Part shown: piece by piece, positions 21,793 through 64,000 of the stretch
How the letters are laid out: every line of letters begins with the position of its first letter
How positions within the stretch are numbered: the first letter of the stretch is position 1
Virus record (IMG/VR): IMGVR_UViG_3300043411_001314
Coordinates: 53,503 to 117,502 of that record
Strand: one strand, 5' to 3'
DNA from: a virus
Length of the DNA: 64,000 nucleotides
Notes under the pieces: model-generated
The model's database searches: none
The model's input: only the letters and a program-made list of their open reading frames with translations
What the model was told of the DNA's origin: nothing
Made by a program: the position numbers and the translations under genes

Positions 21793-22925
21793 CAGGATCT
21801 CCAGTGAAAGGAAAGCTCGAGCTCGGGCCGGGCGGCTGCCCAGCATGCGGCTTTGAACTTGGTGGTGTTGCCGTCGAGCAACATGAACAGGAACGGTCGG
21901 TGCGGGCTGGCGGTTGCCAGCATGGCGAACTGCTTGCGCATGGCGCTGTCGTCTCGGATCTCGGGCGCTGGGGCGCCCATCTCCTGGAGGATGGCCCGGT
22001 ACGCCTTGAAGGCGCCACGCATCACCTCCCACTTCTTGTTGCGGATGGAACGGATCTGGTCGTTCAGCCAGCGCCGGAACTCGTCGGGGACCGTGTCGTA
22101 GAGCCGGTCCATGCCGGTGTCGGTCCGCAGGTAGTCCCAGACGGTCCGACTGGTGCAGCCGGTGAGGAGGGCGTAGAGGCGGACGTACTCGGCTTCCTTG
22201 GCTTTGGCCCGGGTCACGCCGTCGGCGGACACCAGCACGTACCCCTCGCTGTTCGGCCGTGACGGCAGGGACGGAAGGTCATGCGGTCCACCGAGGATGC
22301 CGAGCACCTCGACGCGGGCCCACGGCCACCAGTCGAACACCGGGTCGTGAGGGGAGGTGAAGTTCCCGGTGGCGATCTCGATCGCACCGAGCAGCCGGAG
22401 CTCGGCCAGCCGGCCGTAGTCCACCACGATCCGGTTCTCCGGGTAGATGATCTCGGCCAGGATGGTGTGCTCGGCCGGGTCGAGGTCGAACGGGAGCTGG
22501 TCACACAGTGGAACCCGCTCACTGAAGAGGTCGTTGGCGAACGCAGCCTGCTTGCCGGCGAAGGATCCCTTCGTGGCCCACCGGAAGCTCCCCTCAGCGT
22601 CGAGGTGGCCGACCCCAAGCGTTCCATCGGCTTTGTCGTAGGCGGTGACAGGTGGGGCCAGGTCGATCGGCCCGGCCGGCCCGTCGTCACCGTGCTCGCC
22701 CAGGTTGAAGAACTTGGGGAAGGGGCGAGCCACCACGGTCCCGTCGTCGGCCAGGATCAGCCCGCGACAGGTCCGCGTCACGTCGTCCCAGGCCCGGGTG
22801 AACTGGACCCGCTGGGTGTAGCAGTAGATGCTGAGCGGCTGCGTCGGGTGACGTTGGGCCCGGACCAGGCCCTGTTCGATGTGGCGCTCCAGCAGCTTGG
22901 GGTTGAAGAGCTCGTCGACCTTCAC
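21792..22925 (-). CDS. T4 Rnl1-like RNA ligase (377 aa)
   Basis: Nucleotidyltransferase motif I is YDKADG (K98 is the adenylated lysine), preceded by RGLILADDG (R54) as in Rnl1; motif III/IIIa region AEIIYPENRIVVDYG; motif IV EGYVLVSADG; motif V RAKAKEAEYVRLY with the paired lysines. The C-terminal ~120 residues form a helical domain, as in T4 Rnl1, which contacts tRNA. Joins 5'-phosphate and 3'-OH RNA ends with ATP. Length (377) is close to T4 Rnl1 (374). Confidence 0.92.
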   Translation of the reverse strand: MKVDELFNPKLLERHIEQGLVRAQRHPTQPLSIYCYTQRVQFTRAWDDVTRTCRGLILADDGTVVARPFPKFFNLGEHGDDGPAGPIDLAPPVTAYDKADGTLGVGHLDAEGSFRWATKGSFAGKQAAFANDLFSERVPLCDQLPFDLDPAEHTILAEIIYPENRIVVDYGRLAELRLLGAIEIATGNFTSPHDPVFDWWPWARVEVLGILGGPHDLPSLPSRPNSEGYVLVSADGVTRAKAKEAEYVRLYALLTGCTSRTVWDYLRTDTGMDRLYDTVPDEFRRWLNDQIRSIRNKKWEVMRGAFKAYRAILQEMGAPAPEIRDDSAMRKQFAMLATASPHRPFLFMLLDGNTTKFKAACWAAARPELELSFHWRS

Positions 22926-22947
22926 ACTTCCACCATCTTCGCTTCGG

Positions 22948-23085
22948 TCACTTCTTCGCCTTGCCCTTCTTCTTGGGCTCGACGGCCCGTGGGTGTGCTT
23001 TGTGGAACTCGTCGGCCAGCGTCACGAGATGATCGGCCATCGGTAGGTCGCACCCGGCTTGCGGGCACTTCCACTCCTCCTTCAT
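22948..23085 (-). CDS. tiny lysine-tailed Cys protein (45 aa)
   Basis: ATG 23083-23085 overlaps the stop of the HTH gene upstream (ATGA). The protein begins MKEEWKCPQAGCDLPMADHL with a CxxxxC pair and an LADEFHKAH helix (a His-x4-His-like C2H2 zinc-finger pattern C-x4-C-x7-H ... H), and ends in a lysine-rich tail (EPKKKGKAKK). Probably nucleic-acid binding. Confidence 0.6.
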   Translation of the reverse strand: MKEEWKCPQAGCDLPMADHLVTLADEFHKAHPRAVEPKKKGKAKK

Positions 23086-23339
23086 GCGGTCCTCGCGAAC
23101 GGTGGCGGCCGGCGCCGGCGTGGTGGCTCGGCCAGGTTCTCCACGACGGCTGTTCTGGTGGCCGGGGTGAAGGTCCGCTGCTCGAGGTACTCCTTGATCC
23201 CGTCCTCGGGGATGAGGATCCTGGTGGACACTCGGTGGGCTTGGAGCTCGCCGGTGCGGATCAGCTTGTCGATCGTCCTGATGTGGACGTTCAGCAGGGA
23301 AGCGGCCTCACGTCGGCTCAGCATGGGGCTGATGGTCAT
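23082..23339 (-). CDS. MerR/excisionase-type helix-turn-helix protein (85 aa)
   Basis: Residues ~5-55: MLSRREAASLLNVHIRTIDKLIRTGELQAHRVSTRILIPE, the classical winged HTH of excisionase/DNA-binding domain family (HTH_17), with the wing RVSTRILIP. Start at ATG 23339, which lies 7 bases after the -10 box of an upstream promoter (leaderless). Could be an excisionase or a regulator of the downstream RNA-repair genes. C-terminal tail is Pro/Arg rich. Confidence 0.8.
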   Translation of the reverse strand: MTISPMLSRREAASLLNVHIRTIDKLIRTGELQAHRVSTRILIPEDGIKEYLEQRTFTPATRTAVVENLAEPPRRRRPPPFARTA

Positions 23340-23345
23340 CCTGCA

Positions 23346-23375
23346 ACCATACCGATCGCATATCAGCGGAGTCAA
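23346..23375 (-). promoter_or_regulatory. internal promoter for the HTH gene and RNA-repair genes
   Basis: On the minus strand: TTGACT (23375-23370), 18-base spacer, TATGGT (23351-23346). The HTH start codon at 23339 is at the expected transcription start. The -35 box overlaps the TGA of the RlaP gene. It lets HTH, RNA ligase, kinase and partners be transcribed apart from the upstream operon. Confidence 0.65.
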
Positions 23376-24592
23376 TACCCTGAGCGTCGCCTGCCTAGGC
23401 GGTGATCGACCAAGATCTGGTGAATGAGGTCGATGTTGGGCGTCGCCGGCAGCACCGACTCGACGGCGTTGAAGCGAGCAAAGGCGTCCTCGGCCTCCGT
23501 CACCATGGCCTCCAGCGGGAGCTCCCCGAACTCGAACAGTTCCTCACGGTTCGGGACCATCACTCGCAGCTCGCCCGTCTCCAGGAGGTGGGCTCCCTGC
23601 TGCAGTAGCCGGAGCATGTGGCGGGCGTGCTTGGCCGTCCGCTTCCTGGTGTCGGCGCTGAAGGATCCGTCACCGCGGTTCTTCAGCCGATTGAACTGCG
23701 CCATGGCGTAGCCGCCGAAGGTCGCTCGGCATCGGTCCGAGAGGAAGGCGTCGAGGTTCGCTCGCAGGTCGTCGGCCAGGGGAGATGAGACCTCCGGGTC
23801 GATGGCCAGCACCTCGAGAACCGTCGGGTTGGCGGCAAGCGCCAGGCTCACGAACTTGCCCACCTCGTGCAAGGTGATGTCTGGGTCGGTGCGCGTCCAG
23901 GAGTCCTTCGGGCGCTTGTCGTTCACGCCGACCAAGAGGTGCGCCGGCGCCTCGAAGAACCCTCGGTAGTCGGTGTCGCTGTCCGGCGTGTCGAGCCCGT
24001 AAGCCTTCGAGCCGGCCACCACGACGAGCCCGACATCCATGCCCTCAGGCGGCGACCAGGGGAGGGGCCATGTCCGCACCGTCCGCACCCGTGGTCGCCC
24101 AGGCCGCCCCCCGAGGCCAGCGGCGAATGCCTCCCCGCACTCGCGGTAGTACTGCTCGATGTCGGTGGGTCGATAGCGCCGTCGGATGGCAGCGAGCGGT
24201 AGGGGCGGCGGGAAGCATGGCCTGAGCGCGTGCTGTCGGACCCGCTCTCTGGTGATGCCGAGGACCTTGGAGATCTGCCGAAGAGTCACCCCGGGGAGCG
24301 GCGGCGGGGGAGGCTGGCGCCTACTCGGCTGGGGCTGATGCCACCGCCAGGTCTTCTGTGCCTTCACCTCACCAGGTTTCAACCAGTACCGCCCGCGGTA
24401 CCCGTCCGCTTGGGCATCTTGGGTGACGTTGATGTTGCCGCCACGTGCTCGGTTCCACGAATCCTGCAGCTCCCTCTGGTCGAACATCGCCGACTCGATC
24501 AGGAACCGCATTGTCCGCTGCCTCTGTTGCGTCGCGGCCCGTTGCTCCGGGGACCACCGCGAGATGCGCTCGGGTACTCCGACCTGACTCAA
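23372..24592 (-). CDS. RlaP-type nucleotidyltransferase fused to an N-terminal HTH (406 aa)
   Basis: TTG start at 24592 backed by AGGAGG eight bases upstream. C-terminal ~220 residues are a DNA-polymerase-beta-fold nucleotidyltransferase of the RNA-repair (RlaP, YcgL-like) family: VVVAGSKAYGLDTPDSDTDY carries the GS box (194-195) and the metal-binding D206-x-D208, followed by RGFFEAP, DITLHEVGKFVSLALAANP and a C-terminal helical part. Residues ~101-125 (VTLRQISKVLGITRERVRQH) are a sigma-region-4/HTH-like helix pair; residues 1-90 are basic. The fusion is unusual. The family is reported near RNA ligases and end-healing enzymes, as here. Confidence 0.8.
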   Translation of the reverse strand: MSQVGVPERISRWSPEQRAATQQRQRTMRFLIESAMFDQRELQDSWNRARGGNINVTQDAQADGYRGRYWLKPGEVKAQKTWRWHQPQPSRRQPPPPPLPGVTLRQISKVLGITRERVRQHALRPCFPPPLPLAAIRRRYRPTDIEQYYRECGEAFAAGLGGRPGRPRVRTVRTWPLPWSPPEGMDVGLVVVAGSKAYGLDTPDSDTDYRGFFEAPAHLLVGVNDKRPKDSWTRTDPDITLHEVGKFVSLALAANPTVLEVLAIDPEVSSPLADDLRANLDAFLSDRCRATFGGYAMAQFNRLKNRGDGSFSADTRKRTAKHARHMLRLLQQGAHLLETGELRVMVPNREELFEFGELPLEAMVTEAEDAFARFNAVESVLPATPNIDLIHQILVDHRLGRRRSGY

Positions 24593-24611
24593 GACGTGAC
24601 CTCCTGCGGGC

Positions 24612-25025
24612 TCACTTCTTCTTCGCCTTGCCCTTCTTGGTCGCCTTGCGCCGGGCCCGGTCCTTGGCCTTGCGGGCCGCGGCCGGCGTCTTGGTGGCCC
24701 CGGGTGGATGCTTCTCCCACCGGCCGGCCGGGGGAGCCCAGGTGGGGGTGAGTATCTCCAGGAAGAAGAACAACGAGTCGCCGAGCCCGTCGAGTCCGTC
24801 GAGTCCGTCGAGCTCGTCGAACACGTCGTGCATGGCGTCGTTGCCGAACTCGTCCTCGAGCGCTTCGCACGCCGCGTCGTACTCGAACTCAGACAGGTGT
24901 TCCAGGGCGGCGGTGACCGCCCCGCACAGGTCGGTCCGGTGGGCGAACTCGACGATCCGCCTCCCGATGACCTCCCGGCAGGTGTCGTCGTCGAGGTCGT
25001 CCAGGCCGTCCCGCAGGGCGATCAT
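24612..25025 (-). CDS. acidic protein with basic lysine-rich tail (137 aa)
   Basis: ATG 25025 overlaps the SPFH stop (ATGA). The N-terminal 75 residues are acidic and helical, with a short tandem repeat ELDGLDGLDGL coded by a 9-base repeat; the last 30 residues are Ala/Lys/Arg (ARRKATKKGKAKKK). The charge split suggests a nucleic-acid mimic joined to a nucleic-acid-binding tail. No family recognised. Confidence 0.7.
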   Translation of the reverse strand: MIALRDGLDDLDDDTCREVIGRRIVEFAHRTDLCGAVTAALEHLSEFEYDAACEALEDEFGNDAMHDVFDELDGLDGLDGLGDSLFFFLEILTPTWAPPAGRWEKHPPGATKTPAAARKAKDRARRKATKKGKAKKK

Positions 25026-25462
25026 TCGGTCACCGCTCGGCCGGCCTCGAGGATCGGCAGCCCAGCCTCGGTCGGCACGTAGATGATCTGGCCGTTGCCG
25101 CCGGCGAGGGCGTCGATGTAGAGGTACCGCAGGTACTCCTCGGTGAGCGTCGAAGCGATGATGTCCTGCGACTCAGCCAGGCCCCGGGCCCGGATCACCT
25201 CGGCGTCGGCCTTGGCCTGGGCCTGGGTGACCTGGGAGCGGGCCGCGTACTCGGCGGCCTCGGACTTGGCCTTCTGCTCGGCGATGACCGCCTGCTTCTC
25301 CGTGTTCGCCCGGTAGAGGTTCAGTCGTGGGCTGATGATGCCCCATGCCGCGCTGATCAGGAAGATGCCGACGACGAACCCGCCGGTCACCTTGCAGCCG
25401 AACACCACCCACTGCCGGGCCTCGGCGTTCTGCGCGGCCTTCTGCTCTTCGTAGCTTGCCAT
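25022..25462 (-). CDS. mini SPFH/prohibitin-like membrane protein (146 aa)
   Basis: One transmembrane helix at residues ~24-42 (VTGGFVVGIFLISAAWGI), then an Ala/Glu coiled coil (EQKAKSEAAEYAARSQVTQA) and a C-terminus that matches the end of prohibitin/HflC proteins: GLAESQDIIASTLTEEYLRY, then IDALAGGNGQIIYVPTEAG. The globular SPFH head itself is missing between helix and coil, so this is a truncated version. Host relatives form membrane rings that control FtsH protease. Possible roles are dominant interference with host SPFH rings or membrane defence. Confidence 0.7.
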   Translation of the reverse strand: MASYEEQKAAQNAEARQWVVFGCKVTGGFVVGIFLISAAWGIISPRLNLYRANTEKQAVIAEQKAKSEAAEYAARSQVTQAQAKADAEVIRARGLAESQDIIASTLTEEYLRYLYIDALAGGNGQIIYVPTEAGLPILEAGRAVTE

Positions 25463-60843: not shown

Positions 60844-61115
60844 CCAAACGATACGAGCCTTCACCAAACGATATGAGCCGACACGTTCGGCGGTCCGCCC
60901 TGCTGACCAGGTGAACGGGGTGCGATGGGTCACCTTGCGCCACCTGAAGTGGCATGAACGATACGAGCCACGGTCACTCCGCACCCGGCCATCCCGGATA
61001 TGAGGGGATGGGCGTGATGCCTGTTGTGGTAACCGTGTTGGCCCGCTCGAAAGCTAGGGGTGATACCGCAAGAACCGAGTCCGGCCAAACGATAGGACGG
61101 ACCGCCAAACGATAT
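60844..61115 (-). repeat. five TATCGTT(TGG) direct repeats in a 399-base gene-free region
   Basis: All on the minus strand. Complete TATCGTTTGG copies read downward from 60853, 60873, 61094 and 61114; a shortened TATCGTT lies near 60962. Copies in each pair are exactly 20 bp apart (two helical turns). The first pair and the short copy also share an outer GGCTCRTATCGTT. No gene is seen between 60783 and 61181. Candidate operator or iteron array. Confidence 0.6.
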
Positions 61116-61181: not shown

Positions 61182-61589
61182 CTACAGGTCGTTCTTGCTG
61201 AGGATGCGGGGGCCGGAGGACGACGCACCACGGATGCAGCCGTCGATGTTGTACGTCGACGGCCCCATCTCGGTGAACCGCACCTGCAGGACCTTCTCGC
61301 CGTAGCCGTCGATGGTGACCTTGCCGGAGCCGCGGACTCGCCGCTGCCCCTTCTCCGTCACGTCCAGCTTCAGCGGGATGGTGACCCCACCGACCGAGAC
61401 GGCCTTCGGGAGCTCCGAGATGACCTCGGAGCTCACGTTCACGCCGTACTTGTTGTAGTACCGCGTGCCGTCGGCCTTCCGGTTGGTGATGCCCCAGTAG
61501 GTGTTGCCGTTGCGAGCCGTCAGCTGACGGAGCGGAAGGACGTCACCCGTGTTGGTCGTCACCTCGATGACCTCGGTGTTGTTGCTCAT
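61182..61589 (-). CDS. unrecognised protein (135 aa)
   Basis: MSNNTEVIEVTTNTGDVLPL, TYWGITNRKADGTRYYNKYG and a strand-rich middle (LKLDVTEKGQRRVRGSGKVT). RBS GGAG. It is the promoter-proximal gene of the leftward operon, so it is likely expressed early. Possibly a nucleic-acid-binding beta protein; not proven. Confidence 0.7.
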   Translation of the reverse strand: MSNNTEVIEVTTNTGDVLPLRQLTARNGNTYWGITNRKADGTRYYNKYGVNVSSEVISELPKAVSVGGVTIPLKLDVTEKGQRRVRGSGKVTIDGYGEKVLQVRFTEMGPSTYNIDGCIRGASSSGPRILSKNDL

Positions 61590-61693
61590 TGGACTGCTCC
61601 TTTTGGCACCTCCAGGGGCCCTGTATTGGGCCTGGTGGCTGGTGATGCCCCAGAGCGGTCGGGACCGTTCGTGAAGTCCGGGTGGCTTGCCAT
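61586..61693 (-). CDS. possible leader peptide gene (35 codons)
   Basis: ATG 61693 preceded by GGAG at a distance of 8; its TGA overlaps the ATG of the 61182-61589 gene (ATGA). MASHPDFTNGPDRSGASPAT ... VPKGAVQ is Pro/Gly rich. Coupling supports it, composition does not. Confidence 0.35.
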   Translation of the reverse strand: MASHPDFTNGPDRSGASPATRPNTGPLEVPKGAVQ

Positions 61694-61736
61694 CTGACCG
61701 ACTCCGCCCCTTCCAAGCCCGGGTAGGTTCTCTTCC

Positions 61737-62232
61737 CTAAGCGAGGGGGTGCGTGAGCCAAGGGGTCGGCAAGCGGCCCTTTCTCCACTCCTGGTACTTC
61801 ACACTTCCCGTCTCCTCCCGATGTCTCCAAGGTTTCCCGATGCCAGGGGTGGCAGCTGAAGGTAAGGACCCTTCGTCAACTTGCCCCGTAGGGCGCGTAA
61901 ACACACTGCCCCTGACGCCTCGACCCATTCCGAGCCGGGTTGGTAGGTAGTTTCGTACCAGGTCGATTGCTCGGCCCCAGGTAGCTTCCGGGTTAGCTCT
62001 CAAGCAATCTTTCGGATCGGCGTAGTGTCCTCGCCGTCCTCAAACCCTGCGATGATCGAGACCTCAGGTATGGCACACCTGTTCTCCTCGAGGTGCCCGG
62101 TGTCCGTTGCCGGAGATGGGTTGACCTCAAAGCGGGTGGATCTCGCTTCGCACGACCGGGCTTGTCTCTGCCTCGGTGTAAAGGGGATTCGCCCTTGCCT
62201 GGCACGGACCCAGGTTTAGGGCTAGCTGGTCT
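61737..62232 (-). pseudogene. weakly coding, frame-broken region
   Basis: About 500 bases with lower GC than the surroundings and no start-to-stop gene. On the minus strand protein-like text appears successively in different frames: ARANPLYTEAETSPVVRSEI (to 62127), FEVNPSPATDTGHLEENRCA then IPEVSIIAGFEDGEDTTPIR (to 62000), and NPEATWGRAIDLVRNYLPTR (to 61737). This could be a decayed gene with two frameshifts or an untranslated control region. Confidence 0.3.
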
Positions 62233-62422
62233 CTTGCTACCGCTCGACGTCGAGCGTCGAACGGACCAGCACGGCACCGGCACCACTCGACGTCGAGCGT
62301 CGAGCGGCTGGCACCGGCACCGGAGCCGCCGGAGCGGCACCGGCACCAGCACCAGCCAGCAACCACACAATCCGGCAAGCGAGCGACCGGCTCGACCGTG
62401 CCGTAACAATCGGGACCCGATC

Positions 62423-62490
62423 CACCATGAAACACCATGAAAGTTTGTGAGTTTCGTAATGGTTTCGTAACGTAAACGTGAGGTTTCGTC
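62423..62490 (+). repeat. AT-richer direct repeats before the right-end gene
   Basis: CACCATGAAA twice in tandem (62423-62442), then GTTTCGTAA at 62451-62459 and 62462-62470 (11 bp apart) and GTTTCGTC at 62483. This is the most AT-rich spot of the right end and lies 60-130 bases upstream of the plus-strand gene. A TAGAGT box follows at about 62503, a possible -10. Could be operator, iteron or origin. Confidence 0.5.
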
Positions 62491-62549
62491 ACAGTTCGCG
62501 GACTAGAGTGGCGCTTGCAAGTCACCCACCAGCCAGGAAGGCACCAGCC

Positions 62550-63932
62550 ATGACAACCACCAGCACCAGGACCACCAGCAAGCGAGGCTCCGGCAAGGCT
62601 CGACCGGAGCGGCTCCGGCTCGACGTCGAGCCGGTGCCGGAGCACTGGCCAGCCGCCAGCAAGTCGAGCACCCTCGGGGAGCACGTCGCTTGGGTGCCGA
62701 GCACTGGCCAGCGCTGGCACGGCACCGACTCGACGACCCCGGACGGCGCGGCCATCGTCGGGTGTCACTTGCCGTGGCCACTGGACATGACGGGGAGCAA
62801 GCGAGTCTCGACGGCACTGGCTCGGAAGTTCGTCGGTGTCCTCTCGACGGACGTCCGACCGGAGCGACTGGAACAACTCGGCACACTGGCTCAATGGCAG
62901 CTTGCCGGAATCGGTGCCGTCACCGTGATCCGAGCACGTCGAGCCGGAGCGAGCGACCAGGACATCGCGCTTGCCGTGGCGAAGGCATGGCCAGAGGTGG
63001 CGCGAGCGCTCACCACGGCGCGCCAGCGCTCGGATGCTCGGAAGAACACAACGGCACGCGGCGAGCGCGGTCGAGCGGCTCGCGCCGTCGTGACGGCGAC
63101 CGCTTGCCGGTGCCGTCCCGACTCGGACGGCACCGTCCGGCGGCACCGTTGCATCCTGGCCATGCTCCGGCGCCCACTGGCCAGCACGTCGACCGCTCGA
63201 CGCTCGACCGCTCCGGTCGCCATCGTGCCGGTCGAGCACCGGAGCCAGTGGCAAGCGCTCCGGCTCGACGTCGAGCGGCTCCGGCTCGACGTCGAGTCGG
63301 CACGGTCGAGCGTCGAGCGCTGGCACGGTCGAGCCGGAGCGGCTCGCTCGCTGCTGGTCGACGTCGAGCACCAGGACTCGACCGCTCCGGCTGGCACGGT
63401 CGAGCACGTCGAGCGGCTCCGGCTCGACGTCGAGCGGCTCCGGCTCGACGTGCTCGCGACGGACCAGGACGTCGAGCGGCTCCGGCAAGCGGTCGAGTCG
63501 AGCGAGCCGGTCGAGCGCTCGACGTCGACGCTCCGGCTCGACTCGCTCGACTCGCTCGACTCGCTCGACGTCGAGCGTCGAGCGGTCGACGTCGAGCGGC
63601 TCCGGCTCGACGGCATCCGGCTCCGCTACCGGAGCAAGCGGCTCGGCAAGCTTGCCGACTCGCTCGACGTCGAGCGGCTCCGGCTCGCTGGCACGGTCGA
63701 GCCGGAGCGGCTGGCTCCGGTCGACGTCGAGCACCAGGACGTCGAGCGGCTCCGGCTCGACGTGCTGGCCAGTGAGCGAGCCGAGCGGCTGGCTCGGCTC
63801 CGGCTCGGCTCGCTGGCCGGTCGCTCCGGTGCTCGACGTCGAGCGCTCGACGCTCGACGTCGAGCGCTCCGGCTCGACGTGCTGGCCAGCGGCTCCGGCA
63901 CCGGCTCGACCGTGCTCGACTCGCTCGACTGA
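62550..63932 (+). CDS. right-end protein with LRLDVER repeats (460 aa)
   Basis: ATG 62550 with GGAAGG eight bases upstream. Residues 1-30 are Thr/Ser/Arg-rich; residues ~90-180 look like a normal helical domain (STALARKFVGVLSTDVRPER; GASDQDIALAVAKAWPEVAR, an HTH-like helix pair). From ~residue 225 to the end the chain is mostly heptad-like LRLDVER / LDVEHQD units, which would form a charged coiled coil. Because CTCGACGTCGAG is its own reverse complement, the minus strand is open too, with PEPLDVE repeats; the plus frame is preferred for its ribosome-binding site, normal central domain and matching terminator. Confidence 0.65.
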   Translation: MTTTSTRTTSKRGSGKARPERLRLDVEPVPEHWPAASKSSTLGEHVAWVPSTGQRWHGTDSTTPDGAAIVGCHLPWPLDMTGSKRVSTALARKFVGVLSTDVRPERLEQLGTLAQWQLAGIGAVTVIRARRAGASDQDIALAVAKAWPEVARALTTARQRSDARKNTTARGERGRAARAVVTATACRCRPDSDGTVRRHRCILAMLRRPLASTSTARRSTAPVAIVPVEHRSQWQALRLDVERLRLDVESARSSVERWHGRAGAARSLLVDVEHQDSTAPAGTVEHVERLRLDVERLRLDVLATDQDVERLRQAVESSEPVERSTSTLRLDSLDSLDSLDVERRAVDVERLRLDGIRLRYRSKRLGKLADSLDVERLRLAGTVEPERLAPVDVEHQDVERLRLDVLASERAERLARLRLGSLAGRSGARRRALDARRRALRLDVLASGSGTGSTVLDSLD

Positions 63933-63956
63933 CTCGACTCGACGTCGAGCCGGAGC

Positions 63957-63987
63957 GGCCCCCGGGGGTTTCCCCCGGGGGCCTTTT
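63957..63987 (+). terminator. strong rho-independent terminator
   Basis: Twelve-bp perfect stem GGCCCCCGGGGG / CCCCCGGGGGCC, loop TTT, followed by TTTT. Ends the right-end gene's transcription 25 bases after its stop. Confidence 0.9.
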
Positions 63988-64000
63988 CCGGTCTAGTTTG

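What the first reader, a model, noticed from the sequence alone, without database searches (positions are those of the whole stretch)
62243..63949. 1.7 kb of word-restricted DNA with eleven CTCGACGTCGAG palindromes
Coding and non-coding DNA here is assembled from a handful of short words. Eleven exact copies of one 12-bp palindrome and three near copies are visible, and two of them lie outside the gene, so the bias acts on DNA rather than on protein. AA, TT and TA steps nearly vanish. The encoded LRLDVER heptads may be a by-product. Possible meanings: an array of binding sites for a dimeric DNA-binding protein (centromere- or packaging-like), a hot spot for a DNA-modifying enzyme that recognises TCGA, or runaway duplication of a small motif.
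Basis: partly seen in the sequence, partly recalled or inferred. Interest (0 to 1): 0.8.

Follow-up and report, generated by a model that had tools for sequence, protein, structure and literature searches.

The report
Phage gene built from repeated words
At the end of an uncultured phage genome, one gene and the non-coding DNA beside it are written with a very small set of 7-letter DNA words, most likely because short segments were copied locally again and again while the gene's reading frame was kept; nothing found here points to a special protein-binding array, and the sequence alone does not say what the gene does.

Summary
Observation confirmed: all 11 exact CTCGACGTCGAG copies of the window lie in 62243-63949 (11 of 12 in the 117.5-kb phage record), and the DNA is word-restricted beyond what protein and codon usage explain. 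The unit is not the palindrome but 7-mers (GCTCGAC, GCTCCGG, CGGCACC, CGGCAAG, CTGGCCA) in both orientations. The words fill a 180-bp non-coding flank, are absent from the promoter gap, and fill a 460-codon orphan gene with a real frame (35 of 36 direct repeats of 18 nt or more are in frame). A TCGA-enzyme hot spot is disfavoured (63 of 69 TCGA are CTCGAC/GTCGAG; CTCGAG absent against 14 expected). A dimer-site array has little support (22 of 63 half-sites in the palindrome, irregular spacing, spacers made of the same words). Best reading: cryptically simple DNA made by local segment duplication filtered for reading frame; hairpin-mediated copying possible, not needed. Comparable word DNA occurs in three other IMG/VR records, two of them collinear relatives with non-alignable word DNA at the same end, so this kind of DNA recurs. 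No homologue and no isolate with it was found. Function unknown; new variant of a known kind.

The parts
62240..62420 (.). 5' non-coding word-restricted flank with two palindromes and a 43-bp tandem duplication
   Evidence: 63% of its 7-mers belong to the vocabulary of the last 700 bp (control mean 6%, max 16%); tandem repeat 62239-62323
62420..62545 (+). promoter/leader gap free of the words, with three GTTTCGT repeats (62451, 62462, 62483) and a Shine-Dalgarno-like AGGAAGG
   Evidence: 1.7% vocabulary overlap; repeats; SD context. No sigma-70 consensus hit; promoter role inferred
62550..63932 (+). orphan gene, 460 aa, Arg/Leu/Asp/Val/Glu-rich C-terminal part with LRLDVER-like repeats
   Evidence: positional GC like other phage genes; 35 of 36 direct repeats >=18 nt in frame; no Pfam, PHROGs, phage, plasmid or IMG/VR homologue
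62550..63149 (+). N-terminal part of the gene: not heptad-like but still word-restricted
   Evidence: 323 distinct 6-mers vs 416 in synonymous shuffles, z -9.9; 38% vocabulary overlap
63250..63932 (+). most word-restricted part; strongly self-complementary
   Evidence: 63250-63950 RNA fold -490.9 vs -396.4 +/- 4.3 kcal/mol in 20 shuffles
63933..63955 (.). 3' non-coding words with the last palindrome (63938-63949)
63959..63991 (+). terminator-like hairpins just before the record ends
   Evidence: sequence; terminator-like match 63975-63991, number found not above chance

Best explanation
A cryptically simple DNA island at the end of a large tailed-phage record from a probable actinobacterial host. 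It carries an orphan protein gene whose coding sequence and flanks have been rebuilt by repeated local copying of short segments of about 8-36 bp. Shown: vocabulary restriction beyond protein and codon usage, extension into a non-coding flank but not into the promoter gap, excess of direct segment copies, and near-complete preservation of reading frame among longer copies. Inferred: the copying is by replication slippage or short unequal recombination, perhaps aided by hairpins of the palindromic core (template switching), and selection mainly filters for an open, tolerable protein. The protein's activity is unknown.
For: Word restriction and controls. Codon-identical copies: all 6 LDVE, 11 DVE, 11 LRL and 18 VE use the same codons. 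Direct 20-mer pairs 150 vs 16 (order 5) and 49 (order 6), matched only by an order-7 model (137), so the copied unit exceeds 7 bp. Direct repeats >=18 nt: 35 of 36 in frame, while non-coding word DNA of G001 gives 3, 10 and 7 across the three phases. TCGA context fixed to one word, as expected if one ancestral word spread. Strong self-complementarity, which favours hairpin-associated template switching of the kind described in PMC8794818 and PMC7202029 (abstracts only).
Against: Slippage alone does not readily explain why the N-terminal 600 bp, which has no heptads, uses the same words (z -9.9), nor why other phages share words with it. Inverted 20-mer pairs (23) only modestly exceed the Markov expectation (9-15 without strand symmetry, 19-45 with it at orders 5-6), so inverted copying is not required. 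No close relative is available to show copy-number change.
Confidence: 0.55

Rival explanations
1. A functional array of orientation-independent 7-bp sites (GCTCGAC half-sites, 12-bp palindrome as dimer site) for a phage or host DNA-binding protein, doubling as coding sequence.
For: 54 GCTCGAC/GTCGAGC copies with nearly equal orientation (25/29); copies outside the gene; three other records with clustered CGTGCTCGACGT, confined to 2.2 kb of 48.8 kb in G001 and 270 bp of 45 kb in G002; G001 and G002 are collinear relatives (35-62% protein identity in the best matches) that share words (33% of 7-mers vs 2.4% control after masking the search word) but not alignable order.
Against: Spacers are as restricted as the sites; irregular spacing with no common helical phase; only 22 of 63 half-sites in palindromes; several unrelated words are also strongly repeated; words shared by our island and G001 beyond CTCGAC are few (11.4% vs 4.8%, control max 8.1%).
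Confidence: 0.17
2. Selection for nucleic-acid structure: the transcript or a single DNA strand folds into long hairpins that protect mRNA or serve packaging or replication.
For: Fold z -21.8 for 701 nt; 200-nt windows z -3.9 to -6.8 at 63.2-64.0 kb, controls near 0; G001 non-coding word DNA z -5 to -10.
Against: G003 word DNA is mostly not folded beyond chance and its CGTGCTCGACGT copies are all in one orientation; palindromic words give folding as a by-product.
Confidence: 0.1
3. Protein-level selection for a repetitive helical protein plus extreme codon bias; the DNA words are a by-product.
For: Frame conservation of repeats; helices predicted at 231-446 at low confidence.
Against: Synonymous shuffles with the gene's own codon usage do not reproduce the restriction; the non-coding flank shares the words; hydrophobic 3.5-residue periodicity is weak; AF2 mean pLDDT only 48.6.
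Confidence: 0.1
4. Assembly artefact.
For: The island lies at the contig end; the G001 and G002 islands also lie at contig ends.
Against: Longest exact direct repeat 36 bp; intact reading frame over 461 codons.
Confidence: 0.04

Closest known systems
Cryptically simple DNA (Tautz, Trick and Dover 1986, as cited in PMC1634856)
   Same: Biased DNA made of short motifs that are scrambled rather than in one tandem array
   Different: Very strong, in both strand orientations, in a phage, covering a gene and its flank while sparing the promoter gap
Coding minisatellites / repeat-containing phage proteins (from memory)
   Same: In-frame 21-nt units, short tandem arrays
   Different: Most of the island is not tandem; the N-terminal part and non-coding DNA share the words
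Highly iterated palindromes such as cyanobacterial HIP1 (from memory)
   Same: Short GC-rich palindrome far above chance
   Different: Local (11 of 12 copies in 1.7 kb) instead of genome-wide
ParB/parS or operator arrays (from memory)
   Same: Multiple palindromic copies near one gene
   Different: No constant site with free spacers, no regular spacing

Membership tests
Cryptically simple DNA | Short motifs over-represented in scrambled, mostly non-tandem arrangement | tested here: met
Cryptically simple DNA | Generated by slippage-like turnover; length/order variation between close relatives | tested here: inconclusive
   Segment-copy excess; no close relative found; G001/G002 relatives have non-alignable word DNA
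Tandem repeat / minisatellite | Head-to-tail array over the feature | tested here: not met
   TRF finds only short local arrays of 2-3.8 copies
Binding-site array (parS/operator type) | Constant site separated by unconstrained spacers | tested here: not met
   only 189 distinct canonical 7-mers in the last 700 bp; spacers share the vocabulary
Binding-site array (parS/operator type) | Specific binding by a protein | not testable with these tools
   needs an experiment
TCGA-directed modification hot spot | TCGA enriched independent of its flanks | tested here: not met
   CTCGAG 0 vs 14.4 expected, GTCGAC 5 vs 19.8
HIP1-like genome-wide palindrome | Dispersed over the genome | tested here: not met
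Coiled-coil heptad protein | 3.5-residue hydrophobic periodicity | tested here: inconclusive
   weak power at 3.5; helices at low confidence

The most novel reading that the evidence does not exclude
A recurring, undescribed class of 'vocabulary DNA' in actinobacterial phages: islands, often at record ends, in which a shared small set of orientation-independent words (CGTGCTCGACG, CCAGCACG, CCGGAGC) is maintained while their order turns over, because a phage or host protein or a dedicated copying process acts on the words.
Probability: 0.15. Interest if true: 0.75.

Novelty: new variant of a known kind. Interest (0 to 1): 0.45.

Why it matters
It is an unusually clear case in which DNA-level copying, not codon choice, sets the sequence of a gene while the reading frame is kept, so it could show how new repetitive proteins arise in phages. 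If the shared vocabulary in other actinophages proves to be selected, it would point to an unknown DNA-recognising factor.

Tried and rejected
Homologues of the protein: Pfam, PHROGs, phages, plasmids and IMG/VR and G001-G003: none. DNA similarity of the island to phages and plasmids: none; for the G001 word DNA only three short weak matches, none of them a word island. Neighbour protein 61182-61589: no phage match. Terminase relatives in IMG/VR: none. GC-rich protein repeats (for example L264, L267) rejected as ordinary tandem coding repeats. Rfam: only tRNAs. Literature searches found no description of such phage DNA. A coiled-coil reading of LRLDVER was tested and not established.

Full report
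Setting. The window is bases 53503-117502 of a 117,502-base IMG/VR virus record; the finding lies at its right end. The record encodes a terminase large subunit with an intein-like insert (37.7% identity to Caudovirales GX15bay over 58% of the protein), a DnaB helicase and a DNA methylase, a GP88-family protein, tRNAs and, by eye, a WhiB-like protein near its left end. A tailed phage of an actinobacterium is likely, but the host is not proven.

Observation. The count, position and rarity of CTCGACGTCGAG are confirmed, with three rather than two copies outside the gene. The restriction is strongest at 63.2-63.95 kb and weaker but clear in the N-terminal coding part.

DNA or protein? Two controls say DNA. 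Keeping the protein and its codon usage but reshuffling synonymous codons restores diversity (375 observed, 570 after shuffling; distinct canonical 6-mers); the N-terminal 600 bp alone gives z -9.9, the next 600 bp -13.8, other genes -3.4 to +1.9. And 181 bp of upstream non-coding DNA share 63% of their 7-mers with the gene's end, while the 126-bp promoter gap between them shares 1.7%.

But the gene is real. Direct repeats of 18 nt or more are in frame in 35 of 36 cases; in the non-coding word DNA of record G001 the phases are mixed (3, 10, 7). The repeats are not independent, so no probability is attached. Positional GC agrees with coding in that frame. The protein has no detectable relative. 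A single-sequence AlphaFold model is of low confidence (mean pLDDT 48.6) with helices at 231-446, and the hydrophobic 3.5 periodicity is weak, so a coiled coil is not established.

The unit. The palindrome is two copies of the non-palindromic word CTCGAC head to head. There are 63 half-sites, 22 of them in the 11 palindromes; 54 extend to GCTCGAC. Other words are also characteristic (GCTCCGG/CCGGAGC, CGGCACC, CGGCAAG, CTGGCCA). TCGA is almost always in the CTCGAC context and CTCGAG is missing, as expected if one ancestral word spread by copying, and not if an enzyme recognised TCGA.

Copying. Markov models of order 5 and 6 trained on the region give 16 and 49 direct 20-mer pairs against 150 observed; order 7 gives 137. 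So the copied units are longer than about 7 bases. Inverted 20-mer pairs (23) are only slightly above the expectation of the one-strand models (9-15), so inverted copying is possible, not needed. The region is extremely self-complementary, which would favour template switching; this step is inferred.

Recurrence. Searches with word-cluster patterns found L131 (G001, 48.8 kb), L273 (G002, 45.1 kb) and L189 (G003, 25.6 kb). In G001 all 38 copies of CGTGCTCGACGT lie in the first 2.23 kb, in G002 all 6 in the first 270 bp. G001 and G002 are collinear, 35-62% identical in their best-matching proteins, yet blastn aligns nothing between L131 and the G002 stretches. These records were found through the word itself, so sharing was retested with the word and 3 flanking bases masked: G001 and G002 still share 33% of 7-mers (control 2.4%, max 7.4%); our island and G001 share 11.4% (control 4.8%, max 8.1%), which is modest. 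G003 word DNA is mostly not folded beyond chance and is one-sided, so hairpins are not the common factor.

Verdict. A cryptically simple, frame-filtered gene island; mechanism inferred; function unknown; recurrence in other phages is the part that deserves follow-up.

Noticed in passing
60847-61114: Five AACGATA direct repeats (within CCAAACGATAYGAGCC-like units), found nowhere else in the window: iteron- or operator-like array about 1.1 kb upstream of the island.
   Followed up: partly
61590-62240: About 650 bp without a convincing ORF, normal complexity, no Rfam match; function unknown.
   Followed up: partly
1-62000: ATCGAT (0 vs 22 expected) and AGGCCT (0 vs 22) are absent from the rest of the window, suggesting restriction-site avoidance.
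   Followed up: no
L003:2366-5341 (record 22366-25341, minus): Terminase large subunit with an intein-like insert.
   Followed up: partly
L002:15640-15860: A different low-complexity tract in the same phage: tandem array of 12- to 18-nt GGCCGCACCCC-type units.
   Followed up: no
L131:1440-2400: Non-coding word DNA in record G001 with fold z down to -10; relative G002 shares a GTGCCGATAAT...CATTATCGGCAC-like palindrome beside its word DNA.
   Followed up: partly
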